Shown here piece after piece: positions 908 to 51,542 of a stretch of DNA of 64,000 nucleotides. This DNA comes from Sulfurospirillaceae bacterium (GTDB lineage: Bacteria; Campylobacterota; Campylobacteria; Campylobacterales; Sulfurospirillaceae), in NCBI GenBank assembly GCA_028692875.1, contig JAQUWL010000006.1:16169-80168 (forward strand). The letters are read 5' to 3'. Each line of letters starts with the position of its first letter. The stretch's first letter is position 1. The translations under genes were made by a program, and so were the position numbers. The notes beneath the pieces are model-generated. The model saw nothing but the letters and a program-made list of their open reading frames with translations. It was not told the DNA's origin and searched no databases.

Positions 908-1636
908 CTAATTTTTATGATATTTTACAATCATCAAATTATAAATAGCCCGTCCCAAGCCAAAAAATAGATAGGCTGTAATAAACACTGTTGTGCTTTC
1001 GACAGGGTAAAGATATAAAACCGAAAAAACCAATATAAGATAGATAAGAACTTTAATAAGATTTGTTTTTTTAAAATCTATCTTTTTAAAACTTGGATAG
1101 CGTATATTGCTTACCATTAAAAAAGACAAAAGAGCCAAACCCACAAGCATTATCCACTCAAAGCCATGCAAAAAAGCATACTCTTTATAAACAAGCACCC
1201 ACATGGCAACCACAACAGCGGCCGTAGGTATAGGCACTCCGATAAAAACAGATGGCTCGCTCTCGCCTATCATAACATTAAATCTTGCAAGTCTGACCGC
1301 ACCAAAAACGACATACATGGCACATAGCAAAGAGCCGAGTTTTCCAAAACTATGACCTACTGAAAAATAAAAAAGCATAGCTGGAGCAACTCCAAAAGCA
1401 ACAATATCAGCCAAAGAGTCAAACTCTGCACCAAACCTGCTTGTTGTTTTTGTCAATCTTGCGACCCTACCATCAAGCCCATCAAAGATAAGTGAAAGCA
1501 AAATATACATAGCTGCTTTTTCGAACTGACCATTAGCAGAAGCAATGATGCTTACAACACCTAAAAAAGCACTCGCGGCAGTAAAAAGGTTTGGAAAAAC
1601 ATACATAAGTTGAAGTTTTCCGCTATCGTTATTCAT
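908..1636 (-). CDS. pssA: CDP-diacylglycerol--serine O-phosphatidyltransferase
   Basis: Integral membrane enzyme that makes phosphatidylserine from CDP-diacylglycerol and serine. The CDP-alcohol phosphotransferase signature D-G-x2-A-R-x8-G-x3-D-x3-D is complete (DGRVARLTKTTSRFGAEFD, then SLAD), and about six to seven hydrophobic segments follow the usual pattern. I chose the ATG at 1636 (MNNDSGKLQL, AGGATGACA in front), which overlaps the psd stop by 8 bases; in-frame starts at 1642 and 1699 exist but would add an unusual soluble extension. Downstream of psd in the conserved pssA-psd-ftsH order known from C. jejuni. Confidence 0.93.
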   Translation of the reverse strand: MNNDSGKLQLMYVFPNLFTAASAFLGVVSIIASANGQFEKAAMYILLSLIFDGLDGRVARLTKTTSRFGAEFDSLADIVAFGVAPAMLFYFSVGHSFGKLGSLLCAMYVVFGAVRLARFNVMIGESEPSVFIGVPIPTAAVVVAMWVLVYKEYAFLHGFEWIMLVGLALLSFLMVSNIRYPSFKKIDFKKTNLIKVLIYLILVFSVLYLYPVESTTVFITAYLFFGLGRAIYNLMIVKYHKN

Positions 1637-2291
1637 TGTCATCCTGCTTTTCATATCCAAAATATCCCAACACGCTCTCTCCCGCTTTAACACTATCACC
1701 TATGGTAGCTTTTATTCTAGTATCTATGGGAAGATAAAGCTTAACTGAGCCATCCACTAAAAGTCCAAATCTTTGAGCTGATTTTAGTGGTCCAACGCTT
1801 TTAAACAAATCAACTTTTCTACCAAACATCCCAACATTTACAATCATTCTAACAGTAGAAAACTTACTCTCACATGTAAGAATAACTCTCTCGATTAAAC
1901 CCTGTGCAACACTTGAGTTTATCGGCAAAAAAAGACCGTGAATTTTTTCTGTCTTTTGAATATAAAGTGCCGTTGGTGCACGCAAAAAGGAGACGTCCGA
2001 TAGGCTTTTTTTCAACACAACCCTTACCACTTCCAGATTTGAAGTAGGAATAGTAACTTTGGAAATACTCTCAACAGTGCCATCGCAAGGAGATAAAATC
2101 GCCATATCATCATCTTCGGCAGGTATTCTCTCTGGATTTCTAAACACATACATTGCCACCAACAATAGAGCAAGAAAAAACCACTGAAAAAATTGCAAAT
2201 ACAAAGCAATGCCAAATATAACAAAAAAAACACCTATATAAGACCATCCCTCTTTTGCAAAAAGTTGCGTAGTGGTGTGAAACTTAATCAC
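1629..2291 (-). CDS. psd: Phosphatidylserine decarboxylase proenzyme (short type)
   Basis: Converts phosphatidylserine to phosphatidylethanolamine; partner of the PssA step encoded immediately downstream. 220 residues, the short class, with two hydrophobic segments near residues 18-45. The self-cleavage site that generates the pyruvoyl group is the Gly-Ser in FGLLVDGSVKLYLP, so a small alpha chain would start at that serine. The start is GTG at 2291, overlapping the ftsH stop by 8 bases with GAGG upstream. The overlaps with both ftsH and pssA suggest translational coupling. Confidence 0.92.
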   Translation of the reverse strand: MIKFHTTTQLFAKEGWSYIGVFFVIFGIALYLQFFQWFFLALLLVAMYVFRNPERIPAEDDDMAILSPCDGTVESISKVTIPTSNLEVVRVVLKKSLSDVSFLRAPTALYIQKTEKIHGLFLPINSSVAQGLIERVILTCESKFSTVRMIVNVGMFGRKVDLFKSVGPLKSAQRFGLLVDGSVKLYLPIDTRIKATIGDSVKAGESVLGYFGYEKQDDNE

Positions 2292-4236
2292 CGCCTTGTT
2301 CCTCTTTGGATACTTTTGCGTCCTTGTCAGTTATGCGATGCTTAAAATCAGACGTAATTCCATTTTCATTTTCATAATTTTCAATAATGACACGCAATGA
2401 ATCTCCATCGATTGTCTCTTTTTCTTTTAACGCCTCAACTATGCTCTCTATACATCCTTTGTACTGCTCAAGTTTTTTCACTACAATCTTGTATCTATCT
2501 GTGAGCATATTTTTAACATAAGAGTCCAAATCTTCAGCCATTTTTTCACTATAATCTTTTGTGCTTCCGCCATTTAAAAAGACATTTCTCTGCTTCTCCA
2601 GCACCATCAAGCCAGCCACTTCACTCATTCCATAAATTCCAACCATTGCCTTTACGATATCAGTTGCTCTTTCAAGATCATTGCCCGCACCAGTAGATAT
2701 CTCGCCTATAAATACCTCTTCTGCGGCACGACCAGCCAAAAGAACGTCTATCTCGGCTACAAGCTCGTGTCTTTGCATTAAAAATTTATTCTCCTCTGGA
2801 GTATTGAGAGTATATCCCAACGCTGCCAATCCCCTAGGGATGATGGAAACTTTAGAAACCTTTTTAGCTCCCTTGGTTGTCTCAGCTATCAAAGCATGTC
2901 CGCTTTCATGGTACGCCACGATGCGTTTTTCTTCTGGATTTATACGTCTACTTTTCTTCTCCAATCCTGCAATCGCACGCTCAACAGCCTCAACCAAATC
3001 TTCTTGTTCAACATGTTTTTTGTTTTTTCTGCCACCCAAAAGCGCAGCTTCGTTTATAATATTTGCCAAATCCGCACCCGCCAATCCTGCGGTCAATCTT
3101 CCTATCTCGTCCAAATCTATATCTTTTCCTAACTTTATGCCTTCAATATGAACTTTCAAGATATCAACTCTGCCTTTAAAATCGGGCTTATCAACCAAAA
3201 CCTGTCTATCAAATCTTCCTGGTCGCAAAAGTGCAGCATCTAAAACTTCTGGTCTATTTGTAGCCGCAAGCACAATAACAGGGGACTTATCAGAGCTAAA
3301 ACCATCCATCTCTGCCAAAAGCTGATTTAAAGTTTGCTCTCTCTCGTCATTGCCACCCATCATACCGTTAGCCGCACGACTCTTTCCGATAGCATCTATC
3401 TCGTCAATAAACACTATTGCGGGGGCTTCTTTTTTTGCATTGTCAAACAAATCTCGAACACGACTTGCACCAACGCCCACAAACATCTCGATAAAACTTG
3501 AGCCTGAAACTGAGAAAAATGGAACACTTGCCTCTCCAGCAACTGCCTTAGCCAACAATGTTTTACCCGTTCCTGGAGGTCCAACTAGCAAAACGCCCTT
3601 TGGAATCTTTGCACCCAAATTCATATATCTATCTGGGTGCTTTAAAAAATCAACTATCTCTTTAACCTCTTCTTTTGCCTCTTCAACACCTGCAACATCA
3701 TCAAACTTTACTTTTGGCTTTTCGGAATTGACTAGCTTTTTACTGCTACCCATACCCAAAATACCGCCACCCATATTTTTTTGCATCTTGTTTGCTAAAA
3801 ACATCCAGATACCAAAAAAGATAAAAACCGGCAATATCCACGAGAAGAAAATCTCACTTAACATATTTGTTTCGTTGTATCCACCATAAGGAATCTTTTT
3901 CTCATCCAGCAAAGAGAGCAAACTAGGGTCTTCCCCTACTTTTTTTGCAACATAAGTACCATCTACTGCCGAAGCCTTCAAAAGCGTCTGCCCAATTGCA
4001 ACATAGCTCACTTGAGATGTTTTTATTTTCTCTTTTAAGTCATAATAACTTACATTTTTTGTAACACTACTCTGTACACCCATAGTTGAATTAGCAGGAA
4101 TTCCATCGCCTTGATTGACGAAACTTTTAAATATAATAATTACCACTATTGAAAATATTGCGAACACCAAAAGAGGATTTTGGTTAAAAGGTCCGCCATT
4201 TTTATTTTGTCTATTATTATTGTCTTTTTGAGCCAT
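2284..4236 (-). CDS. ftsH: ATP-dependent zinc metalloprotease FtsH
   Basis: Membrane-anchored AAA+ protease that degrades misfolded membrane proteins and short-lived regulators. At 650 residues it is normal length. A transmembrane segment at about 21-40, a periplasmic domain, and a second segment at about 131-148 precede the AAA module: Walker A GPPGTGKT at 219-226, Walker B VFIDEIDA near 275-282, and the RPGRFDR arginine-finger region at 338-344. The zinc site HESGH is at 443-447. The start ATG at 4236 follows prmA's stop by 4 bases with AAAAGG upstream. All catalytic residues appear intact. Confidence 0.98.
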
Positions 4237-32455: not shown

Positions 32456-33501
32456 TAAAACACATCTCCATATTCACTATTTGCTCGCTCATACTCTTCC
32501 ATCCGACCAATATCTAGCCAATATTCTCGGATAGGAAATGAGAGTGTATTTTTACCTATGCCTATTAACTTTTCAAACAATATGGGCATATCAAAAAAAG
32601 TATCTTTCTCAATATACTCTATAGCTTTGGGATTTAACATATAAATACCAGCACTTACAAAAAATTTCTGGACAGGTTTTTCTTTAATAGATACTATTTT
32701 ACCATCTTGCATATTAACAACGCCATAAGGCACTTGAAAATCATATTCTCTTACGCACATCGTTGCCATAGAGTTGTTTGCGAGGTGGTAGTGATGCAAA
32801 TGCTCAAAATTTACATTGGTTAGCAAATCACCGTTCATGACAAAAAATGGCTCATTTGGCACCTCTTTTAAAAGGCTAAGTGCCCCTGCTGTGCCCATTC
32901 TTTTTTCTTCTAAAACATACTCTATATTGACACCAAAAGAACTTCCATCTCCAAAATAATCTTGAATAACATGGGATTTATAATTAACACACATCACAAT
33001 ATTGACAAATCCATACTCCGCAAACTTCTCGACAATGGTCTGAAGTATGGGTTTATTACCAACCATTAGCATGGGTTTAGGAGTATTTTCTGTTAAGGGT
33101 CGCAGTCTAGTTCCTAGCCCACCTACCATTAAAACAACTTTATTGGGTTTTACGCTTGAGCTTACAAGCTCCTCTATCTCTTTTATGCCAACAACTCTAT
33201 TTTCTTCATCCACTATTGGTATTTGATGCAATTTTTTAGCAAGTGCTTTTTTTAAAATCTCTTCTTTGGTATCGCTTATCTTGGCTACTGTTGGATTTTT
33301 AAAGATGATAGGCTCGATAGCACTATCCAAGCTCAAACCCCTCAAAAGTCCTCGCCTGATATCCCCATCGGTCAATGTGCCAACAAGTCTATCTTCTTCA
33401 TCTACAACGATAGCTATCTGCATGGCACCCTTGTCGATAACATCTAAAGCCTCTCTGATGGTCGAAGATGGCTTTAGTTTTATATTTCCTATATTTTTCA
33501 T
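32455..33501 (-). CDS. ptmE: Glucosamine-1-P guanylyltransferase PtmE with CBS pair
   Basis: 348 residues. Residues about 1-115 are two CBS domains (IAIVVDEEDRLVGTLTDGDIRRG and a second DEENRVVGIKEIEEL unit), fused to a nucleotidyltransferase from about 118 (VVLMVGGLGTRLRPLTENTPKP; metal Asp in FFVMNGDLL). This CBS-NTase fusion is the PtmE type that commits sugar to the GDP-linked legionaminic acid route. The start overlaps the stop of the intervening ORF6N gene (ATGA) rather than a pathway gene. Confidence 0.9.
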   Translation of the reverse strand: MKNIGNIKLKPSSTIREALDVIDKGAMQIAIVVDEEDRLVGTLTDGDIRRGLLRGLSLDSAIEPIIFKNPTVAKISDTKEEILKKALAKKLHQIPIVDEENRVVGIKEIEELVSSSVKPNKVVLMVGGLGTRLRPLTENTPKPMLMVGNKPILQTIVEKFAEYGFVNIVMCVNYKSHVIQDYFGDGSSFGVNIEYVLEEKRMGTAGALSLLKEVPNEPFFVMNGDLLTNVNFEHLHHYHLANNSMATMCVREYDFQVPYGVVNMQDGKIVSIKEKPVQKFFVSAGIYMLNPKAIEYIEKDTFFDMPILFEKLIGIGKNTLSFPIREYWLDIGRMEEYERANSEYGDVF

Positions 33502-34070
33502 TTTTTAATCTTTTTTATACTTCTGCTAACTTTGGCAAAACCAAGATTGAACTCAAATTTCGTAGTAGTTTCTACTACTTCACTATCTTCATCATCAGCC
33601 AATATATCAGATTCTATCTCTATAATCTCCTCAAGGATTTTATTTGATTTTTTCGCCAGTTCTTTTTGTTTTTCTTTATTTTCTGTTTTCATGATAGCAT
33701 TTATATTTCTTGATAGCTCTTTTACTTTTGCAAAGGTTTCGATGATATTTAAAGTAGTTTGAATAGCTTTTTCGCTAGTAAGAATTGTTGCTAACATATA
33801 TAAGCCTTTTTCGGTAAAAACCTTTGGGTTTACAGTAGAATGTTTGAGTTTATCGAACCGGTCAAAATTTTTGACCAGTTCTGTTTTTTCATCTTTTGTT
33901 AGCTCTATCACATAACCATTAGGAAATTTACTAGGATTGTTGGATACGGCTTGATTGACTTCTTTTGTAGCAACATTATATAACTCCGCTATATCTTTAT
34001 CTACTATTACAAATTGGTCATGATATTGAATGAGTTTGCTTTCTATTGTTTCAAATTTAATTATACTCAT
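33498..34070 (-). CDS. ORF6N-domain DNA-binding protein
   Basis: 190 residues from the ATG at 34070 (GAGG six bases upstream). QFVIVDKDIAELYNVATKEVNQAVSNN is the ORF6N/KilA-type N-terminal DNA-binding domain, and NPKVFTEKGLYMLATILTSEKA its second half; the C-terminal third is charged helix. Phage antirepressors and scattered chromosomal genes of unknown role carry this domain. It stands alone inside the legionaminic acid operon, between the PIG-L gene and ptmE, with no pathway function I can see. The junctions carry similar TTTCATTTTAA-like sequences (34080-34090 and 33496-33508), hinting at insertion. Confidence 0.8.
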   Translation of the reverse strand: MSIIKFETIESKLIQYHDQFVIVDKDIAELYNVATKEVNQAVSNNPSKFPNGYVIELTKDEKTELVKNFDRFDKLKHSTVNPKVFTEKGLYMLATILTSEKAIQTTLNIIETFAKVKELSRNINAIMKTENKEKQKELAKKSNKILEEIIEIESDILADDEDSEVVETTTKFEFNLGFAKVSRSIKKIKK

Positions 34071-34086
34071 GTTTGCCTCTTTCATT

Positions 34087-40361: not shown

Positions 40362-41467
40362 GCTTGTTCCTTGCTTTGTCTGTAGTTTATTTTATCTACT
40401 GCTGACAATTCTTCCAAATCTTCTTTTACTAAATCTTCTAGTTCTTTTGTTGTTGGCAATACGACCTTATACTTTGAAACAAAAAGATTTTCATCAAGCC
40501 CTGCGGTGGCATATTCTACTTTGACGCTGTTTTTTTCAGTACAAAGTATGATTCCTATAGGTGGGTTATCGCCTTGCATTGAAATTTCGTTTTTGTAGTA
40601 GTTAAGATAAAAATTCATCTGCCCGACATCCGCATAACTAAAAGCTCTAACTTTAAGGTCAACCAAAACATGACATTTAAGCACTCTGTGATAAAAAACT
40701 AAATCTATTCTATCATGTTCATTATCTATAGAAATTCTTTTTTGTCTTGCCTCAAAACAAAATCCAGTGCCTAGTTCTAGCAAGAAATCCTCTATATGAT
40801 TTAATAAAGCACTTTCTAAATCATTTTCGCTATAGCTCTCCTTATTTTCAAGTCCCGTAAACTCCAGTATATAAGGCTCCTTGACAATTAAGGCTGGATT
40901 GAAAAGTTCTTTTTTATTTTCTAGTGATTGGAGTAAACTTTTTTTATCTACCGACAATCCAACTCTTTCATACAGAAGTGATTCCACTTGTCTTTTTAGC
41001 TCCCTTACGCTCCAGTTTCCTTTGATGGTTTCTACTTCATAAAATGTTCTCTTGAGTTCATTATCTATTTTTATAAGCTCAATAAAATGGGTAAAACTGC
41101 AAGTTCTTAAAAGCTTCTCAGTAGGTACATTCAAAGATTGGTCAGTCACTGATTGACTTATTTTATAAGGTATCTTGAATTGGTCGCTCACTGATTGACT
41201 TATTTGTGGATAAGTGAGATAAAATTGCCTCATAAGCTTTAAAGCCGTAGTTGACATCCCTTTGACATGCGATAACTTTTGAGCCATATTCTCTATAAGT
41301 TTCGCTCCATAAATGGCTCTATCACTCCCATTTTGTTCATACTCTACAATATAATACCCGATAATAAAATTTCGCAAAGTAAGATTTATACTCAAGCTTT
41401 GCAAAGCTTTGGTTTGAAATGTTTGATGTACGGTGTTTATGGTTGAGATAAGGCTTGGGAGTGTCAT
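40358..41467 (-). CDS. YhcG-like PDDEXK nuclease (DUF1016)
   Basis: 369 residues. N-terminal helical domain (about 10-150) characteristic of DUF1016; C-terminal PD-(D/E)xK nuclease with IDLVFYHRVLKCHVLVDLKVRAF and the following QMNFYLNYY. Family members are thought to act in DNA repair, defence or mobile-element biology. Isolated between legH and legI; its GTGA overlap with legI and the ATGA overlap with the small ORF upstream make it fully embedded in the operon. It is a different subtype from the second copy at 50080-51114. The upstream legH looks truncated here. Confidence 0.85.
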   Translation of the reverse strand: MTLPSLISTINTVHQTFQTKALQSLSINLTLRNFIIGYYIVEYEQNGSDRAIYGAKLIENMAQKLSHVKGMSTTALKLMRQFYLTYPQISQSVSDQFKIPYKISQSVTDQSLNVPTEKLLRTCSFTHFIELIKIDNELKRTFYEVETIKGNWSVRELKRQVESLLYERVGLSVDKKSLLQSLENKKELFNPALIVKEPYILEFTGLENKESYSENDLESALLNHIEDFLLELGTGFCFEARQKRISIDNEHDRIDLVFYHRVLKCHVLVDLKVRAFSYADVGQMNFYLNYYKNEISMQGDNPPIGIILCTEKNSVKVEYATAGLDENLFVSKYKVVLPTTKELEDLVKEDLEELSAVDKINYRQSKEQA

Positions 41468-41565
41468 TTTAACTTTCCTGACTCATCCAGCATTACCTGA
41501 ATACCTCTTGTGGTATAAATTTTATCTTGAATCGTTTGGTTATTGGCTATGGTTAAATTATTCAT
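41464..41565 (-). pseudogene. Remnant of an ORF6N-domain gene
   Basis: A 33-codon ORF between legH and the nuclease. Its first 27 residues (MNNLTIANNQTIQ, then DKIYTTRGIQVMLD) match the beginning of ORF6N-domain proteins, in which VMLD is normally followed by the D-L-A-E-L-Y helix; here the reading breaks off into ESGKLK and stops. The ATG overlaps the legH stop (ATGA) and the stop overlaps the nuclease ATG. It looks like the stub of an earlier insertion overwritten by the nuclease. Confidence 0.6.
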
Positions 41566-42137
41566 TTGGCCACACTCCCTGCCTTGATAAATCCACTGAC
41601 AAGTATAGACTCTTTACATGTAGCGTTACTTCCATAAAAAGTTGACGCTTTTACATGTACATTTCCATTCACAATCGCACCTGTTGAAATGTGACAATTA
41701 TCTTCGATAATAGCATCGTGTTCTATCAATGCTTTGGTGTTGATAATGCAATTTTTTCCTACTTTTGCATTGGCATTAACAAGAGCATGGTGCATAACAA
41801 TGCTTCCTTCTCCTACATGTGCATGTTTTGAAATGTATGCTAGTGGAGAGATAATAACTGGTAAGTTATATCCTAGTTGTATTAGTTTTTCAAAAATACC
41901 AATGCGTATTTGAGATGTTTTTATCTGTCCTAGCGTGATAAATGCGTGGTGATATTGTTTTCGTAAAGCGCCCAAGTCATCATCACAACCAACGATATCA
42001 TACCCCAAAACTTTTTGTCCGATAAACTCTTTTTTATCGATAATCCCAGCAATGGTAAATCTACCTTCTTGCTCTATCACATCAATGACAGATTTACAGT
42101 GTCCACCTCCACCGATAAGAAGGATTTGCTCTTTCAT
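41562..42137 (-). CDS. legH: PglD/LegH-type sugar N-acetyltransferase, C-terminus short
   Basis: Acetylates the 4-amino group of the LegC product. 191 residues: N-terminal Rossmann-like ILLIGGGGHCKSVIDVI, C-terminal left-handed beta-helix with catalytic His in NTKALIEHDAIIEDNCHIS. The family normally ends with a coil such as a G-A-G-x-V-V-x-K-D ... V-G-x-P-A-K tail of about 16-20 residues; this protein stops at KAGSVAK, just where the ORF6N remnant begins. The loss of the tail, which helps hold acetyl-CoA, may impair it. Contains two TACATGTA sites. Confidence 0.85.
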   Translation of the reverse strand: MKEQILLIGGGGHCKSVIDVIEQEGRFTIAGIIDKKEFIGQKVLGYDIVGCDDDLGALRKQYHHAFITLGQIKTSQIRIGIFEKLIQLGYNLPVIISPLAYISKHAHVGEGSIVMHHALVNANAKVGKNCIINTKALIEHDAIIEDNCHISTGAIVNGNVHVKASTFYGSNATCKESILVSGFIKAGSVAK

Positions 42138-43273
42138 ATTCTCACCGAACTTGGGATATTAACAACACGTTCTTCTAGCCAAGAAGCATTGGATAAATCT
42201 CCACACTGACATGCTTTAAACATCTCTAACTTATTCATTAATGTCCATATGGGTCGGCTCATCACACCGTTGCTATTGGTGTATTCTAAAAATATATCTC
42301 TTTGTTCTTTATTCTCCAAGATAATAGCATTGAGCCAGTAATTAGACTTTGAATCTTTAGGCTCTTTAACATAGCTTATCTTTGAGTCTTTAAAAAATGC
42401 TTCATAGCGTTTTGCCAAATCTCTTTTGTTCTCTAAAAAGTTATTGAGTTGTTCAAGTTGTGCCACCAAAAGAGCCGCATTGAGATTTGGCAGACGGTAG
42501 TTATAGCCTATCTCATCATGCACAAACAACCATTTATGAGGTACTTTTGCAGTTGTTGTGATATGTTTTGCTTTTTTTGCCAAAACCTCATCATCGGTCA
42601 CAACAACACCGCCACCACCGCTGGTGATGATTTTATTGCCATTGAAACTAAATGCACCTACCCGACCAAAAGTGCCCGTATGTCGTCCTTTGTAGTAACT
42701 CCCCAGCGACTCGGCAGCATCTTCGATAAGAGCGATATGCCACTCATCACAAATGGCTTTTATCTCATCTATGCGACATGGATGCCCAAAAGTATGCATC
42801 GGGACACACGCTTTAATGACTTTTTTCGTTATTTTATTGATACACTGATTATCTTTAATGTGTGCATTTTCATTTAAAAATGTACGCAAAGCTTCTGGAG
42901 ATAAACCCAAAGTATCTCTATCCACATCTACAAAAATAGGCTTCGCCCCACAATACGTTATAGCGTTACATGTTGCGATAAAAGTCAAAGGCTGGGTGAT
43001 AACTTCATCGCTCTCACCTACTCCCATCAAAACTAAGCTTACATGTAAAGCCGCCGTTCCATTCACGGTTGCTATAGCATACTTGCTACCTACATGTAAA
43101 GCAAATTCTTTTTCAAATCTATCGACATAAGCCCCCACGCTTGAAACAAATGTGGAATCTATACAGTCATTGAGATACTTTTTTTCATTGCCTATAAAGC
43201 GTGGTTCGTGCAAGGAGATAAACTTTTGAGCTACAAAAGTGTCTTGAATAAATTTTACTATTTTTGCATACAT
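42134..43273 (-). CDS. legC: LegC-type sugar aminotransferase
   Basis: Transfers an amino group to C4 of the keto sugar made by LegB. 379 residues; FISLHEPRFIGNEKKYLNDC and STFVSSVGAYVDRFE are the LegC-family N-terminus, IEDAAESLGSYYKGRHTGTFG gives the PLP Asp, AFSFNGNKIITSGGGGVVV the Schiff-base lysine. Its ATG directly follows the KilA-N stop (TAGATG), and that junction is one copy of a 15-bp direct repeat whose other copy ends legB, so legC originally abutted legB. Confidence 0.92.
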   Translation of the reverse strand: MYAKIVKFIQDTFVAQKFISLHEPRFIGNEKKYLNDCIDSTFVSSVGAYVDRFEKEFALHVGSKYAIATVNGTAALHVSLVLMGVGESDEVITQPLTFIATCNAITYCGAKPIFVDVDRDTLGLSPEALRTFLNENAHIKDNQCINKITKKVIKACVPMHTFGHPCRIDEIKAICDEWHIALIEDAAESLGSYYKGRHTGTFGRVGAFSFNGNKIITSGGGGVVVTDDEVLAKKAKHITTTAKVPHKWLFVHDEIGYNYRLPNLNAALLVAQLEQLNNFLENKRDLAKRYEAFFKDSKISYVKEPKDSKSNYWLNAIILENKEQRDIFLEYTNSNGVMSRPIWTLMNKLEMFKACQCGDLSNASWLEERVVNIPSSVRI

Positions 43274-43285
43274 CTACATCTTCCC
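43271..43285. repeat. 15-bp direct repeat, copy 1 (KilA-N/legC junction)
   Basis: CATCTACATCTTCCC on the plus strand; on the coding strand GGGAAGATGTAGATG, i.e. Gly-Lys-Met-stop of the KilA-N gene plus the ATG of legC. Identical to 44099-44113. The two copies are 828 bases apart, exactly one gene. Confidence 0.9.
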
Positions 43286-44101
43286 TAACTTTTTAATCGA
43301 TGAATTATTTATCAAAGATTTCATTTGAGATATCGCCATTTCATTGAGTGCTATAAGTCTATCAGATTGAGCAATACCTCTTTTTATAAGTTCGGCATTG
43401 ATACTCTCCATATTTGAAAGAACTATAAGCTGTTCTACGCTTGTATAATCTCTAATATTACCCTCTTTGTTCGTATTTGCTTCTCTCCATTCTTTTGCAG
43501 TCATTCCAAAAAGTGCTACGTTTAGCACATCCGCTTCGTTAGCATAAATAAAACCATCTTTTTGTTTTGATAATACACTCATTGGGATGAGATGTTCTTT
43601 TATAGCATCCGTATGTATTTTATAGTTTATCTTCGAAAGACTTCTGCTTAAATTCCACTCTAAAGATTTATTTTGTATCTCATCTTCTTTGAGTCTTTGA
43701 AACTCTTTGATAAGAAAAAGTTTAAACTCGGCACTTATCCAACTAGCAAATTCAAAAGCTATATCTTTATGAGCATAGGTTCCACCATACCGTCCTGCTT
43801 TACTAATAATACCTATAGCATTTGTATTTTCTATCCATTTAGAAGGAGACATCGTAAAACTATTTAATCCAGCTTCATTTTTAAACCCGTCGAATTCGAC
43901 CCCTTTAAAATTAGGATTGTTTATTTGCTCCCAAAGACCCAAAAACTCTATCGTGTTTTTACTTCTAAGCCAGTTTTTGACAACATCTTTTGGTTCATCT
44001 GTATTTTTAGCTCTTGCTATATCTGTTAAAGATATAAAATCAATTTTTTCATGCCGACGAATTTCGATACTTGTATCTTGAACTATAATTTTATTTTTCA
44101 T
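43274..44101 (-). CDS. KilA-N domain protein
   Basis: 275 residues. IEIRRHEKIDFISLTDIARAKN, VVKNWLRSKNTIEFLGLWEQINNPNFKGVEF and SKAGRYGGTYAHKDIAFEFASWISAEFKLFLIKEFQRLKEDE form a complete KilA-N DNA-binding domain like that of phage antirepressors; the C-terminal half carries helices of the kind seen in chromosomal KilA-N proteins. It lies exactly between legB and legC: the unit from ATG to stop is 828 bases and is bounded by an exact 15-bp direct repeat, each copy holding a G-K-M-stop end plus ATG. It therefore looks inserted without disturbing either pathway gene. Function unknown. Confidence 0.88.
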   Translation of the reverse strand: MKNKIIVQDTSIEIRRHEKIDFISLTDIARAKNTDEPKDVVKNWLRSKNTIEFLGLWEQINNPNFKGVEFDGFKNEAGLNSFTMSPSKWIENTNAIGIISKAGRYGGTYAHKDIAFEFASWISAEFKLFLIKEFQRLKEDEIQNKSLEWNLSRSLSKINYKIHTDAIKEHLIPMSVLSKQKDGFIYANEADVLNVALFGMTAKEWREANTNKEGNIRDYTSVEQLIVLSNMESINAELIKRGIAQSDRLIALNEMAISQMKSLINNSSIKKLGKM

Positions 44102-44113
44102 CTACATCTTCCC
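44099..44113. repeat. 15-bp direct repeat, copy 2 (legB/KilA-N junction)
   Basis: Same CATCTACATCTTCCC as at 43271-43285. Here it encodes the last residues of LegB (GKM), its TAG stop and the ATG of the KilA-N gene. YLDGKM is probably the native end of LegB, so this copy is probably the original and the other the duplicate. Confidence 0.9.
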
Positions 44114-45295
44114 ATCTAGGTATTTGCCTGTTTCTTTATGTCCGAAATTAGGAATCATTTCATGAAAAAGTGTAACTATCTCTTCTTTTGTCCACGATTT
44201 ATCATTTTTCATTTTTTCTATCTTTTTCGTAAAATTATCAAGCTTTTCTTCATCAAATAATGGCTCATTTTTGATAATCCCAAGATTTTTAAATCGGGTC
44301 ATATCAAGCGTTTCATTTTCTGTAAAAAATTCTTCAAAATCCTTCTCGCCTGTTGTATCACTACATGTAAATAGACAAGGCCACTTTCCTTGTTGTGGAA
44401 GCACGCGGGCAAGCCTTCTTGCTTCGTCCTCATCTTTACATAAATAAGGCTCGTAGCCTACATTTTCAAGGTACTTTATCGCTATATCAGCAAACGTTAT
44501 CAAATGAAGCTCAACGCTAAGTTTTGGGAAAAATATATCTCTATTTTCACCAAAAATACAACTCATCAAACAAAGCTCTCCACTCTCTTTTGGCGTTACA
44601 AAATAGCGTTTAATATCATTGGGTGCGACAAGGGGTTGATGTTTTTGGATGCGTTGATTGAAGCTGTGAAGTAATGAGCCATCGCTAAACGCAACATTGG
44701 CAAATCTAGCAGTGGAGATAGGTATGTGAAGGCTTTTTCGCATCAAAAACATCTCCATGATACGCTTACTTGCACCCATCATATTGACAGGATTTGCTGC
44801 TTTATCCGTACTTACACAGAAGTATTTTTTAGTGCCTTTTTCTATGGCTTGTTGCAATGTTTTATCGGTATTGAAAATATTGACATCAATAAGGCGCATC
44901 AATGTAAAAGGGTCTTTTTCACTTCGCACATGCTTCAATGCAGAAAGATTTAACACATAATCATACTGACCATCAGCCTGTATAAAAGCCTCATATTCGA
45001 TACTTCCAACATCAAGTGCAAAAGTTTGAAAATCCCCATCAATATACCCAAAAGAACTGCGAATATCACGTACCAATTCTGCCATATTGTTTTCACTGAT
45101 ATCCACAACATGTAACTTTTTAGGACTTCGTTTAAATATCTCTTTAGTCACCGCTTGACCGATGCTTCCAGCACCTCCGATGACAAGAAAAGAAGAAGAA
45201 GAAACAATAGAAAAAAGTTCTTTTTCATATTTCCCTATGTCATATAAAAAAAGTTCTTTTTCTCTACCAATTAAGTTCAATATATTATTTCTCAT
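44102..45295 (-). CDS. legB: NDP-HexNAc 4,6-dehydratase (LegB)
   Basis: First step of the nonulosonate branch: GDP- or UDP-GlcNAc to the 4-keto-6-deoxy sugar. 397 residues: SFLVIGGAGSIGQAVTKEIF nucleotide loop, FCVSTDKAANPVNMMGASKRIMEMF (T-D-K ... M-G-A-S-K-R catalytic region, the soluble PglF-like class), plus a C-terminal extension with FTCSDTTGEKDFEEFF. Soluble, unlike PglF. Overlaps the pglK stop by 11 bases. Next to legC, originally adjacent. Confidence 0.88.
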   Translation of the reverse strand: MRNNILNLIGREKELFLYDIGKYEKELFSIVSSSSFLVIGGAGSIGQAVTKEIFKRSPKKLHVVDISENNMAELVRDIRSSFGYIDGDFQTFALDVGSIEYEAFIQADGQYDYVLNLSALKHVRSEKDPFTLMRLIDVNIFNTDKTLQQAIEKGTKKYFCVSTDKAANPVNMMGASKRIMEMFLMRKSLHIPISTARFANVAFSDGSLLHSFNQRIQKHQPLVAPNDIKRYFVTPKESGELCLMSCIFGENRDIFFPKLSVELHLITFADIAIKYLENVGYEPYLCKDEDEARRLARVLPQQGKWPCLFTCSDTTGEKDFEEFFTENETLDMTRFKNLGIIKNEPLFDEEKLDNFTKKIEKMKNDKSWTKEEIVTLFHEMIPNFGHKETGKYLDGKM

Positions 45296-48269: not shown

Positions 48270-49682
48270 CTATTTTACTTCGCTTTCCAATTTCCAATAT
48301 CCACTTTTATCACTTCCAACTCGCACTATAAGTTTATACTCTTTTAACTTTTGAATACTTCTCATAATCGTTGTTCTATTTTTACCAACTTCTTTCACAA
48401 TCTTAGTATAAGAGATATTTGGATTGGTCCGTATCGCATTTAATATTTTTTCTTGTGTTTCATTTAGAGGTGCATTTAGAGGTGCATTTAGAGGTGCATT
48501 TTCTTCTCTCTCTTGCAATTTAACTTCCACTCGAAAAACTTCACCTTCTACCAAAATAGGATCGCTTCCACCATAGGCTTTTGCATACTTGTAAAGATTT
48601 TTCACTCCGCTTCCAAGCTCATCCGCAAAGCCTATCTCGCGAAAAACCTTTGCTATGGTTGGATTTTTTGGATAAGGTGTAAAATTGGTTGGTTTTAGCT
48701 CCCCATAACTATGTGGGATATTTGCATTTTCAAAAACTACATTATGTCTACCAATAACCATTTTTGCCACATATGCACTGCTATATTCTCGATGTATCAA
48801 GCTATTTGACACGGCTTCTCGAAAGATTTTATCTCTTAGACTTATGCGCATATCTCCCTCAAGATAAAAAGGGTCATTTAGATGTTTTTTTACAAATTCC
48901 ATCATCTTATAATAACTGTCAATCAGATTAGTCGTTACTATCTCTCTATCATCATATCTATCAAGATTCATTTTACGAAGTATCAGGTCTGTTTTATGAT
49001 GAGGCAGAGCATTGGTTATCGTTTCATCTTTACCAAAAAGCAAAATAGCCCCAAGGGTAAACCCTTCTTTGTTTGTCGTTTTATCGACCTTGTAAAGTCC
49101 TGAACTTTTTAATAATTCAAAATCACTCAATTCTTCCCACGGATGAGTATCAACACGTCTGTTTGATGCTACGATGCGGATTCGCTTTATAAGGTCTAAA
49201 TCAAAATCATCCATTGTTACATAAGGAAAAACTTTGTCTTCTGTATAAATGTCTTGCTTAAAAAGGTAAAGCTTAGCAATATTTGCATTTTGTCCAGTGA
49301 TATTTATATCGCTATCATTGTTTCTATCAAATATCTTTCCATTTAGAGTGCACACAGACTTGCTTTGTGGTACTTTGATGTATAAAATCTTTTTGTTTTT
49401 TATTTCTATCGTTTCTATAGTAAGATACAAAGGTGGACTAAATTTTTGGGGATTGTTTATGGCTGTCACAAACTCTTTTTTTATGTGTTCAATGGCATCT
49501 TCGTCTACACCCACGATGTTTCCATCATCTTTTACACCTAAAAATATATGACCTCCAGCTCGATTTGAAAATGCACATACGGTTTCATAAACATCTTTGC
49601 TGAGCTGATTTTTTGATTCTTTAAACTCAACTTTAAAGCTCTCGCCTTGCATAATAAGCTTTAGTATATGCTCTAGTTGCAT
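48270..49682 (-). CDS. AlbA_2-type ATP-binding transcriptional regulator
   Basis: 470 residues. N-terminal AlbA_2 DNA-binding domain (FKVEFKESKNQLSKDVYETVCAFSNRAGG, HIFLGVKDDGNIVGV), a GHKL-like ATPase region (LRDKIFREAVSNSLIHREYSS, GSGVKNLYKYAKAYGG), a linker of repeated NAPL units, and a C-terminal winged helix (NISYTKIVKEVGKNRTTIMRSIQKLKEYKLIVRVG). Proteins of this kind are scattered singletons in many bacteria; targets rarely known. It overlaps the MarR-type gene by 10 bases and may be co-transcribed with it. The linker repeat is perfect at DNA level and could vary in copy number. Confidence 0.85.
   Translation of the reverse strand: MQLEHILKLIMQGESFKVEFKESKNQLSKDVYETVCAFSNRAGGHIFLGVKDDGNIVGVDEDAIEHIKKEFVTAINNPQKFSPPLYLTIETIEIKNKKILYIKVPQSKSVCTLNGKIFDRNNDSDINITGQNANIAKLYLFKQDIYTEDKVFPYVTMDDFDLDLIKRIRIVASNRRVDTHPWEELSDFELLKSSGLYKVDKTTNKEGFTLGAILLFGKDETITNALPHHKTDLILRKMNLDRYDDREIVTTNLIDSYYKMMEFVKKHLNDPFYLEGDMRISLRDKIFREAVSNSLIHREYSSAYVAKMVIGRHNVVFENANIPHSYGELKPTNFTPYPKNPTIAKVFREIGFADELGSGVKNLYKYAKAYGGSDPILVEGEVFRVEVKLQEREENAPLNAPLNAPLNETQEKILNAIRTNPNISYTKIVKEVGKNRTTIMRSIQKLKEYKLIVRVGSDKSGYWKLESEVK
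48461..48496. repeat. Perfect 12-bp tandem repeat, three copies
   Basis: CATTTAGAGGTG repeated at 48461, 48473 and 48485, followed by a partial fourth unit. It encodes (Asn-Ala-Pro-Leu)x3 in the linker before the winged helix of the AlbA_2 protein. The unit is a multiple of three, so copy-number change keeps the frame. Confidence 0.95.
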
Positions 49683-49996
49683 GATTTCATCACTTCAAGT
49701 TCTCGCTGCAATTCTTCATACTCTTGTTTCTTTCGCTCAATAAACTTTTCTGTTAAAGCTATTTTTTCTTTAAAACCTTGTTCTGTTAAAAGATATCGAT
49801 AGGCTTTTTTATTGGTACTATGAGAGAAATTTTCGATTTTTATGAGTCCTTTTTGGATAAGTGCTTTTAGGATGTAATTCACTTTTCCTACACTGTACCC
49901 GATTGAACTTGCAATATCTCTTTGGGTGGTATGCTCCCCAGCAACTCTCAGGATGGCTAAAGTATCGGTATTGTTTATTGTATCTTGTGTGTTCAT
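49673..49996 (-). CDS. EPS-associated MarR-type transcriptional regulator
   Basis: 107 residues. Winged helix TQRDIASSIGYSVGKVNYILKALIQKGLIKIENFSHSTNKKAYRYLLTEQGFKEK then a coiled coil LTEKFIERKKQEYEELQRELEVM; this arrangement is the small MarR-type family found at the head of exopolysaccharide/O-antigen operons. It heads the leftward run of pglK, leg and later genes. Two GTTCA-N5-TGAA(C/T) inverted repeats lie in front and over its start codon, suggesting autoregulation. TATAAA ends about 11 bases before the ATG and no ribosome site is visible, so the mRNA may be leaderless. Confidence 0.85.
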   Translation of the reverse strand: MNTQDTINNTDTLAILRVAGEHTTQRDIASSIGYSVGKVNYILKALIQKGLIKIENFSHSTNKKAYRYLLTEQGFKEKIALTEKFIERKKQEYEELQRELEVMKSCN

Positions 49997-50015: not shown

Positions 50016-50042
50016 TGAAGCTTTGATGTTCATAAATTGAAC
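50016..50042. repeat. 27-bp direct repeat, copy 1
   Basis: Begins TGAAGC and ends with the palindrome GTTCATAAATTGAAC. The other copy at 51516-51542 differs only at the sixth base (A for C). Copies are exactly 1,500 bases apart and enclose the YhcG/123-residue gene pair. Confidence 0.92.
50028..50042. promoter_or_regulatory. Operator-like inverted repeat GTTCA-N5-TGAAC
   Basis: GTTCATAAATTGAAC, a perfect five-base inverted repeat with five-base spacer, lying just upstream of a TATAAA box for the MarR-type gene. An identical copy lies at 51528-51542 in front of the 123-residue gene. Probable binding site for the MarR-type protein; inferred from position and symmetry. Confidence 0.55.
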
Positions 50043-50079: not shown

Positions 50080-51114
50080 CTACTTTTCAAATAAATTTTC
50101 CAATCTTTGGCTTATTTCACTTGGCGTTGGCAACAAATCTTTAAATTCGCTTGGTAAAAATTCTGTAAGTTTATAAGTAGCAACTCCTATTGGTTGATTG
50201 CTCTCTTTGAGTGCGTATTCCACTGTTGTTCGTTTTTTTTCTTTACAAATGATGATGCCGATGGATGGATTTTCATCAGGTAGTTTAATAGTGTCATTTA
50301 ACACTGAGAGATAAAAGTTCATTTTTCCTGCGTATTCTGGTTTGAACTTTCCTATTTTTAGCTCAATGGCTATTAGAGATTTGAGCCTTCTGTGATACAA
50401 AAGTATATCTATAAAATACTCTTCATCATCTACTTCTAGTTTGTATTGATTTCCCAAAAAGGCAAAGTCAGAACCCATCTGAGCTAAAAACTCTCTTATT
50501 TTATTTATAAGTCCAATTTCCAACTGATGTTCGCTATACTCTTCACCTAATTCTAGAAAGTCAAAATTATATTCATCTTTTACAGCAAGTGAGGCTTGAT
50601 GTTTGTATTTTTCTACTATTGTAATATCAAAATTTGTTTGATTTAAAAGAAATTTTTCATAAGATTTGTTATCGATATGATTGTCCAGCACTCTAGATGT
50701 CCAGCCAAACTTTATGACCATTTTGATGTAAAATTCTCTTTCTAATTCATCTTTGGCTTTTTGGAAAATGACCACATTGTGTGTCCAACCAATTTGTGCA
50801 GTCAATGCCTGCAGTTTTGTGTTGTCTCTGTATTCAATATAGAAAGTTCGCATATTCCAAAGATTTCTTTCACTAAAACCTTTCATTCCTACAAACTCTT
50901 TTTGAAGTTCTTCTGAGAGGTTTTTTACTACAGATTGTCCCCAGCCAAACTGCTCTTGTTTTTCTACAATATTTTTACCAATATCCCAATAAAGATTTAT
51001 AAGCTCTTTGTTGACTGCTTTTAGGGCTTCATATTGAGATGAAAGTATTTTAGATTTTATTTCTTTGACAAAGGTAGTGAAGTGTTGGTCTGTAGGCGAA
51101 AGTTCTTTTTTCAT
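50080..51114 (-). CDS. YhcG-family PDDEXK nuclease (DUF1016)
   Basis: 344 residues, the standard layout: N-terminal helical DUF1016 domain (LINLYWDIGKNIVEKQEQFGWGQSVVKNLSEEL, GFSERNLWNMRTFY, IGWTHNVVIFQKAKDELEREFYI) and C-terminal nuclease (DEEYFIDILLYHRRLKSLIAIELKIG, KMNFYLSVLND) with the D ... ExK catalytic set. Coupled by ATGA to the small gene upstream; the pair is bracketed by 27-bp direct repeats between the epimerase and the MarR-type gene, so it looks like an inserted cassette. Role in defence, recombination or insertion itself unknown. Confidence 0.88.
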   Translation of the reverse strand: MKKELSPTDQHFTTFVKEIKSKILSSQYEALKAVNKELINLYWDIGKNIVEKQEQFGWGQSVVKNLSEELQKEFVGMKGFSERNLWNMRTFYIEYRDNTKLQALTAQIGWTHNVVIFQKAKDELEREFYIKMVIKFGWTSRVLDNHIDNKSYEKFLLNQTNFDITIVEKYKHQASLAVKDEYNFDFLELGEEYSEHQLEIGLINKIREFLAQMGSDFAFLGNQYKLEVDDEEYFIDILLYHRRLKSLIAIELKIGKFKPEYAGKMNFYLSVLNDTIKLPDENPSIGIIICKEKKRTTVEYALKESNQPIGVATYKLTEFLPSEFKDLLPTPSEISQRLENLFEK

Positions 51115-51482
51115 TTTAGCAACTCTATTATTTTATACCACTGTTCTTTATCTATATCGTGACCAATACTATTATTTTCTATAGCTTCTTCTATCTCTGT
51201 TTTCATTTTATTTTTTGTATTTTGTGATAATATTTGCCAATTGGTCAATATGTTTTCGACAACTTCTGAAACTATATAGGTTTGTCTACCTAAAGCATAT
51301 CTAAAAGATGCAAGTAGTGTTAACTCAGATACTTTTATCGCAGATTTTTGTAATAAATCTTCTAAAATATCATGGCACTCTTGCAGCTGTTCATCTGTGA
51401 CATTATCACTCATACTTATTGCTTGAGCTAAAATATCAAACTCACATAAATTTTGTTCTCTATTATCATCTATAGTTTTCAT
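51111..51482 (-). CDS. Small protein of unknown function paired with YhcG nuclease
   Basis: 123 residues, acidic, predicted helical. SAIKVSELTLLASFRYALGRQTYIVSEVVENILTNWQILSQ is the most distinctive block and resembles short proteins I associate with phage or plasmid genomes, without an assignable function. Ends ATGA-coupled to the nuclease, so the two probably act or are controlled together. Inside the 1,500-base repeat-bounded unit, with an operator-like site 46-60 bases upstream of its start. Confidence 0.7.
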   Translation of the reverse strand: MKTIDDNREQNLCEFDILAQAISMSDNVTDEQLQECHDILEDLLQKSAIKVSELTLLASFRYALGRQTYIVSEVVENILTNWQILSQNTKNKMKTEIEEAIENNSIGHDIDKEQWYKIIELLK

Positions 51483-51515: not shown

Positions 51516-51542
51516 TGAAGATTTGATGTTCATAAATTGAAC
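51516..51542. repeat. 27-bp direct repeat, copy 2
   Basis: Second copy of the repeat at 50016-50042 (26 of 27 bases identical), including GTTCATAAATTGAAC at 51528-51542. It lies 8-34 bases after the epimerase stop and upstream of the 123-residue gene. Confidence 0.92.

What the first reader, a model, noticed from the sequence alone, without database searches (positions are those of the whole stretch)
43271..44113. KilA-N gene inserted exactly between legB and legC, bounded by a 15-bp direct repeat
Seen directly: GGGAAGATGTAGATG (coding strand) occurs at the end of legB and again at the end of the KilA-N gene. Each copy encodes G-K-M-stop followed by the ATG of the next gene, and the copies are 828 bases apart, exactly one ATG-to-stop unit. 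Inference: legB and legC once abutted; the KilA-N unit entered at the stop/start junction and duplicated it, leaving both pathway genes and the likely ribosome site (GGGAAG) intact. No transposase, integrase or terminal inverted repeat is present. A gene-sized, junction-directed, coupling-preserving insertion of this kind is not a mechanism I know.
Basis: partly seen in the sequence, partly recalled or inferred. Interest (0 to 1): 0.8.

Follow-up and report, generated by a model that had tools for sequence, protein, structure and literature searches.

The report
Defence-candidate gene slotted into sugar operon
A single KilA-N gene, of a family suspected of protecting against phages, has been inserted exactly between two sugar-pathway genes and took its stop codon from a duplicated copy of its neighbour's end, and related single genes in other genomes show the same kind of scar.

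Summary
GGGAAGATGTAGATG occurs exactly twice in the window, 828 bp apart, at the ends of legB and of the KilA-N gene. The insertion is real: in nine same-family loci (eight genomes), and about two dozen order-wide, legB runs straight into legC without a KilA-N gene. Those empty sites read GGGAARATGTAATG (overlapping), not TAG-ATG, so one extra G is unexplained. KilA-N relatives share sequence from about GATG to AAAAGTTAGG; the window gene's last codons and stop come from legB. The 15-mer decomposes as GGGAA+GATG+TAGATG, whose two edges match the ends of a relative (G030).

It is not unique. KilA-N relatives are flanked by partial copies of neighbouring sequence far more often than control genes (22/129 vs 5/380). 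The right copy begins at the KilA-N 3' end in 10/129 vs 0/334. Differences between copies are mostly third-position, so many copies come from two functional alleles. PADLOC calls the protein PDC-S22, a single-gene phage-defence candidate; PDC-S05 and PDC-S02 genes sit in the same locus.

Best reading: additive recombination at short homologies duplicated the site, and selection for operon continuity kept it. Precedent: "insertion with long target duplication" of restriction-modification genes.

The parts
43274..44101 (-). Inserted KilA-N gene, 275 aa, PDC-S22; sequence shared with relatives runs from about the ATG to codon 271-272, the rest is site-derived
   Evidence: ORF; Pfam KilA-N E 7e-24; PADLOC PDC-S22 E 3e-136; end alignment
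44099..44113 (-). Upstream copy of the 15-bp direct repeat GGGAAGATGTAGATG: the native end of legB plus the KilA-N ATG
   Evidence: legB end conserved as GGGAARATGTA in relatives
43271..43285 (-). Downstream copy of the 15-bp direct repeat: last codons and stop of KilA-N plus the legC ATG, derived from the legB end
44109..44113 (-). GGGAA at the 5' edge of the upstream copy; matches the KilA-N 3' end TTAGGGAAATAA of relative G030 (proposed right joint; its counterpart is 43281-43285)
   Evidence: sequence and L032 end; the joint itself is inferred
44099..44104 (-). TAGATG at the 3' edge of the upstream copy; matches the KilA-N 5' flank TTAGATGAAAAATAAAAT of relative G030 (proposed left joint; its counterpart is 43271-43276)
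   Evidence: sequence and L032 start; the joint itself is inferred
44102..45295 (-). legB-like nucleotide-sugar dehydratase, intact, 397 aa
   Evidence: Polysacc_synt_2; relatives 78-85% identical
42134..43273 (-). legC aminotransferase, intact, 379 aa
   Evidence: NCBIfam TIGR04181 LegC family above cut-off

Best explanation
A single-gene phage-defence candidate (KilA-N, PDC-S22) was added between legB and legC by additive recombination at two very short homologies. The KilA-N 5' flank joined at TAGATG, on the downstream side of the junction; the KilA-N 3' end joined at GGGAA, on the upstream side. Because the two joints are crossed, the 15 bp between their outer edges is duplicated. The upstream copy keeps legB's end; the downstream copy gives KilA-N its last codons, its stop and legB's old spacing to legC. 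Purifying selection for an unbroken, translationally coupled operon explains why such junction insertions are the ones seen. In relatives the same outcome is reached with longer partial duplications of a neighbouring gene, often between diverged alleles, which fits incoming DNA that recombines at one end and joins illegitimately at the other. Shown: the insertion, the empty sites, the site-derived end, recurrence, allelic divergence of the copies. Inferred: the molecular route, the place and order of the joints, and selection as the filter.
For: Empty legB-legC sites in relatives. KilA-N genes share sequence up to AAAAGTTAGG and then diverge into the sequence of their own site. G030 carries both matching ends, TTAGATGAAAAATAAAAT and TTAGGGAAATAA. 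In G133 KilA-N between rmlD and rmlB ends KRLGERR*, the C-terminus of rmlD; in G247 a different two-gene unit at that junction is followed by a copy of the rmlD tail. Flanking repeats: 18/102 and 4/27 KilA-N loci against 5/380 control genes; right copy starting at the 3' end in 10/129 against 0/334. Differences between copies fall 10/12/44 on codon positions 1/2/3, p = 3e-8.
Against: The homologies in the window are only 5-6 bp and partly expected at coupled gene ends (stop, ATG, purine-rich ribosome site). Both copies carry TAG-ATG while every legB-legC empty site seen has an overlapping or other junction, so one G is unexplained. Fifteen identical bases cannot show whether one or two alleles were involved here. 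The donor is unknown; G030's gene is only about 60% identical in protein. Loci in the repeat test are not phylogenetically independent, and L140 and L145 involve neighbouring accessory genes.
Confidence: 0.58

Rival explanations
1. The gene is a minimal mobile unit moved by a dedicated activity (its own protein or an enzyme acting in trans) that opens the target with staggered or paired cuts, giving target duplications of variable length; borders lie just outside the start and just before the stop.
For: About tenfold enrichment of flanking duplications at KilA-N genes, similar sign for DUF1016; similar borders in separate insertions; wide spread over phyla; exact 86-bp copies in L140.
Against: No recombinase or nuclease motif or fold was found; no terminal repeats; copies differ mainly at third positions, so many are not simple duplications of one target; a different two-gene unit shows the same rmlD-end scar.
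Confidence: 0.18
2. The window strain received a ready-made legB-KilA-N-legC segment by ordinary homologous recombination from another strain, so the insertion event happened elsewhere and by an unknown route.
For: Glycan loci are exchanged as blocks and gene order around legB and legC varies among relatives.
Against: No other genome searched has KilA-N between legB and legC. It moves the question rather than answering it.
Confidence: 0.17
3. Coincidence: KilA-N inserted by any route, and its end came to look like the legB end by chance or by selection for a ribosome site before legC.
For: KilA-N relatives natively end KKLGK or KKLK and purine-rich ends are common; GGGAA may be native.
Against: The exact 15 bp exceeds all of about 6000 mispaired flanks. 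GATGTAG is absent from the native KilA-N ends compared, while GATGTA is the legB end of relatives.
Confidence: 0.05

Closest known systems
Insertion with long target duplication (Nobusato 2000; Furuta 2010; as described in PMC3874152, PMC1643837, PMC3031569)
   Same: Accessory genes inserted without a known mobile element, flanked by direct repeats of the target of variable length; first described in Helicobacter pylori, of the same bacterial phylum.
   Different: There the cargo is a restriction-modification system and the duplication is of the order of 100 bp. Here it is one KilA-N gene with 15 bp at a stop/start junction of a glycan operon, and the duplicated site supplies the stop codon. 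The two original papers were not available to read.
Phage-defence candidates found by guilt-by-embedding (PDC-S22, PDC-S05, PDC-S02 of PADLOC-DB 2.0; see PMC12988326, PMC10855318)
   Same: The inserted protein matches PDC-S22; ORF6N and DUF1016 neighbours match PDC-S05 and PDC-S02. Single genes embedded inside operons.
   Different: The host operon here is a nonulosonic-acid pathway, not a defence system, and no antiviral activity is shown.
Homology-facilitated illegitimate recombination
   Same: Would give additive insertion with one homologous and one illegitimate joint, and partial copies from donor and recipient alleles, as in L202, L321 and L012.
   Different: The window shows no long homologous anchor, only 5-6 bp on each side. 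Cited from general knowledge; the term is used in PMC8504540 and PMC6382021, which were listed but not read in detail.
Insertion sequences and transposons
   Same: Short direct target repeat around an insert.
   Different: No transposase in the unit, no terminal inverted repeats, and repeat length varies widely among relatives.

Membership tests
KilA-N domain family (PF04383) | Profile match above the curated cut-off | tested here: met
   84.1 bits against 23.8
PADLOC PDC-S22 | Profile match over the full protein | tested here: met
   E 3e-136, residues 2-273
PADLOC PDC-S22 | Embedded in a known defence system | tested here: not met
   Here between legB and legC; other relatives do neighbour restriction-modification genes
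PADLOC PDC-S22 | Antiviral activity | not testable with these tools
   Candidate only; needs a phage assay
Insertion with long target duplication | Empty site without the insert in relatives | tested here: met
Insertion with long target duplication | Direct repeat of target sequence on both sides of the insert | tested here: met
Insertion with long target duplication | Long duplication, of the order of 100 bp | tested here: not met
   15 bp in the window; 30-120 bp in several relatives
Insertion with long target duplication | Restriction-modification cargo | tested here: not met
   Single KilA-N gene
Insertion sequence or transposon | Terminal inverted repeats | tested here: not met
Insertion sequence or transposon | Transposase in the unit | tested here: not met
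   The unit holds one ORF, KilA-N
Homology-facilitated illegitimate recombination | Long homologous anchor on one side | tested here: inconclusive
   Only 5-6 bp in the window; partial copies of diverged alleles in relatives
Integron gene cassette | attC site and an integrase | not tested
   No attC model was run; no integrase was noticed among the window ORFs

The most novel reading that the evidence does not exclude
Solitary PDC genes (KilA-N, DUF1016 and perhaps others) are minimal mobile units: one ORF with fixed borders just outside the start and just before the stop, inserted by a dedicated activity that duplicates roughly 12-200 bp of target, so that the host site supplies the stop codon and the translational coupling.
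Probability: 0.18. Interest if true: 0.88.

Novelty: new variant of a known kind. Interest (0 to 1): 0.6.

Why it matters
Single defence-candidate genes are known to sit inside operons, but how they get there without breaking them is open. This locus and its relatives show a readable scar: the neighbour's end is duplicated, the newcomer borrows its stop and its spacing to the next gene, and an intact neighbour remains. That makes the entry route testable, gives a sequence signature for recent arrivals, and links embedded genes to the older observation of restriction genes that insert with target duplication. It also shows such genes repeatedly entering surface-glycan operons, a locus that phages act on.

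Tried and rejected
Chance or composition as the source of the 15-mer. Terminal inverted repeats. A structural clue to a nuclease or recombinase: model mean pLDDT 77, best PDB match DdrC at E = 0.026, not interpretable. A phage or plasmid vector: phages carry relatives of at most about 64% and plasmids up to 73% over part of the protein, so no direct vector was found. A Campbell-type circle with GGGAAGATG as the only crossover was rejected because it would leave GGGAAGATG-AAAAAT, without TAGATG, on the left. ORF6N alone does not show a significant excess of flanking repeats (1/19). Paper searches for KilA-N with operon or restriction terms gave nothing on mechanism, and Furuta 2010 is not held.

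Full report
Observation. The repeat is exactly as described: GGGAAGATGTAGATG at 44099-44113 (end of legB) and 43271-43285 (end of the KilA-N gene), minus strand, 828 bp apart. The KilA-N ORF spans 43274-44101, 275 aa, between legB (44102-45295) and legC (42134-43273). legC is a LegC-family aminotransferase, followed by NeuD-type and NeuB-type genes, so the pathway naming holds. With two mismatches allowed only these two sites occur in the window. Among about 6000 mispaired KilA-N flanks the longest shared stretch was 14 bp.

Empty sites. In the same family, nine loci from eight genomes have legB directly joined to legC without KilA-N. They read GATGGGAARATGTAATG or close variants: in most of them the TAA stop overlaps the legC ATG. 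In the order-wide legB set about two dozen loci (some of them the same genomes) have legC directly after legB. So the KilA-N gene is the addition. The G may be an earlier change in this lineage; this is unresolved.

Where the unit ends. KilA-N relatives end natively in KKLGK or KKLK. Aligned, the genes agree from about GATGAAAAATAAAAT to AAAAGTTAGG and then diverge, each into its own site. In the window the tail is legB's GAAGATGTAG. In G133, KilA-N lies between rmlD and rmlB and ends KRLGERR*, which is the C-terminus of rmlD in this group; its 3' end AAAAGATTAGGAGAAAGAAGATAA-ATGTTC resembles empty rmlD-rmlB junctions. In L082 the stop lies in a duplicated 60-bp stretch that, read in another frame, matches the end of the upstream gene. 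The insertion site thus supplies the last codons and stop in several separate insertions.

Short homologies. G030, a more distant relative, has TTAGATGAAAAATAAAAT at its KilA-N start and TTAGGGAAATAA at its end. These match the two edges of the window's 15-mer, which reads GGGAA-GATG-TAGATG. Crossed joints at GGGAA and TAGATG would duplicate exactly this stretch. This is an inference; the homologies are short and partly expected at coupled gene ends.

Recurrence. The same family occupies other junctions in Campylobacterales glycan loci: legC|legH (G051), rmlD|rmlB (G121, G186, G043, G285, G133), the junction of a truncated rmlD with a UDP-GlcNAc 2-epimerase-like gene in G371, and sites beside epimerase and flippase fragments (G030, G043). 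At rmlD|rmlB another genome carries ORF6N (L339), and G247 carries a two-gene unit whose right edge, TTAGGAGAGAGAAAATAATG, repeats the rmlD tail.

Test for flanking duplications. With 300-bp flanks and an ungapped +1/-2 score of at least 16, 18 of 102 KilA-N loci have a direct repeat across the gene, against 5 of 274 other genes in the same loci. A further set gave 4 of 27. DUF1016 gave 3 of 21 and ORF6N 1 of 19; legB 0 of 38 and legC 0 of 39; GNAT acetyltransferases 0 of 29. Pooled KilA-N against controls: p = 5e-10; ORF6N alone is not significant. Requiring the right copy to begin at the gene's 3' end, with a score of at least 15, gives 10 of 129 against 0 of 334. The window itself scores 15, so it is not among the 18 but is among the 10. 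Caveats: a few repeats involve neighbouring accessory genes (L140, L145), and the loci are not phylogenetically independent.

Origin of the copies. In the neighbour gene's frame, differences between left and right copies fall 10/12/44 on codon positions 1/2/3 across ten pairs; for a few short pairs the frame was chosen as the open one. A truncated copy that decayed after one duplication would not show this. The copies are therefore mostly from diverged functional alleles (donor and recipient), or the intact gene was later replaced by another allele. In relatives this favours recombination of incoming DNA over duplication of a single target. The window's 15 identical bases are too short to tell.

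What the gene is. Pfam: KilA-N. PADLOC: PDC-S22; the ORF6N gene at 33498-34085 is PDC-S05 and both DUF1016 genes are PDC-S02. PDCs are mostly unvalidated candidates found by embedding in defence operons (PMC12988326, PMC10855318). Tight neighbours of KilA-N relatives are mainly nucleotide-sugar genes and restriction-modification genes. Structure prediction gave no informative match. What the protein does in this locus is not shown; a role in phage defence is the leading guess.

Comparison with the known. PMC3874152 states that some restriction-modification systems insert with long and variable target duplications of the order of 100 bp, and some with short ones; PMC1643837 describes the Helicobacter pylori case. 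The present case shares the outcome but differs in cargo, in size at this site, in the stop/start location inside a glycan operon, and in the donated stop codon. Hence 'new variant of a known kind'.

Verdict. The claim of an unknown junction-directed mechanism is not required, but the enrichment and the shared borders leave a dedicated mechanism possible.

Noticed in passing
window 41464-41565 (-): A 33-codon remnant that keeps an ORF6N-like start (MNNLTIANNQTIQDKIYTTRGIQVMLDESGKLK*) lies between legH and the DUF1016 gene, overlapping both neighbours by ATGA: a shrunken insert that still preserves coupling.
   Followed up: partly
window 50016-50042 and 51516-51542: A 27-bp direct repeat (96%) flanks the two-gene unit 50080-51482 (unknown ORF plus DUF1016), a second insert with target-like repeats in the same locus.
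   Followed up: partly
window 50028-50042 and 51528-51542: The palindrome GTTCAATTTATGAAC occurs exactly only at these two places, one of them just upstream of the MarR-like gene 49673-49996; it could be that regulator's operator.
   Followed up: no
L032 (G030) 1440-3874: Epimerase 5' fragments alternate with DUF1016 and KilA-N genes, and a KilA-N-like tail (TTAGGGAAATAAGATAATG) stands alone upstream of the first fragment, like an excision scar.
   Followed up: partly
L354 (G247), between rmlD and rmlB: A two-gene insert, the first gene with a P-loop-like start (IIAGANGSGKTT), is followed by a copy of the rmlD tail, so the scar is not limited to KilA-N.
   Followed up: partly
window 48461-48501: Three copies of a 12-bp tandem repeat inside the AlbA_2 gene (NAPL repeated in the protein), next to its HTH domain.
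   Followed up: no
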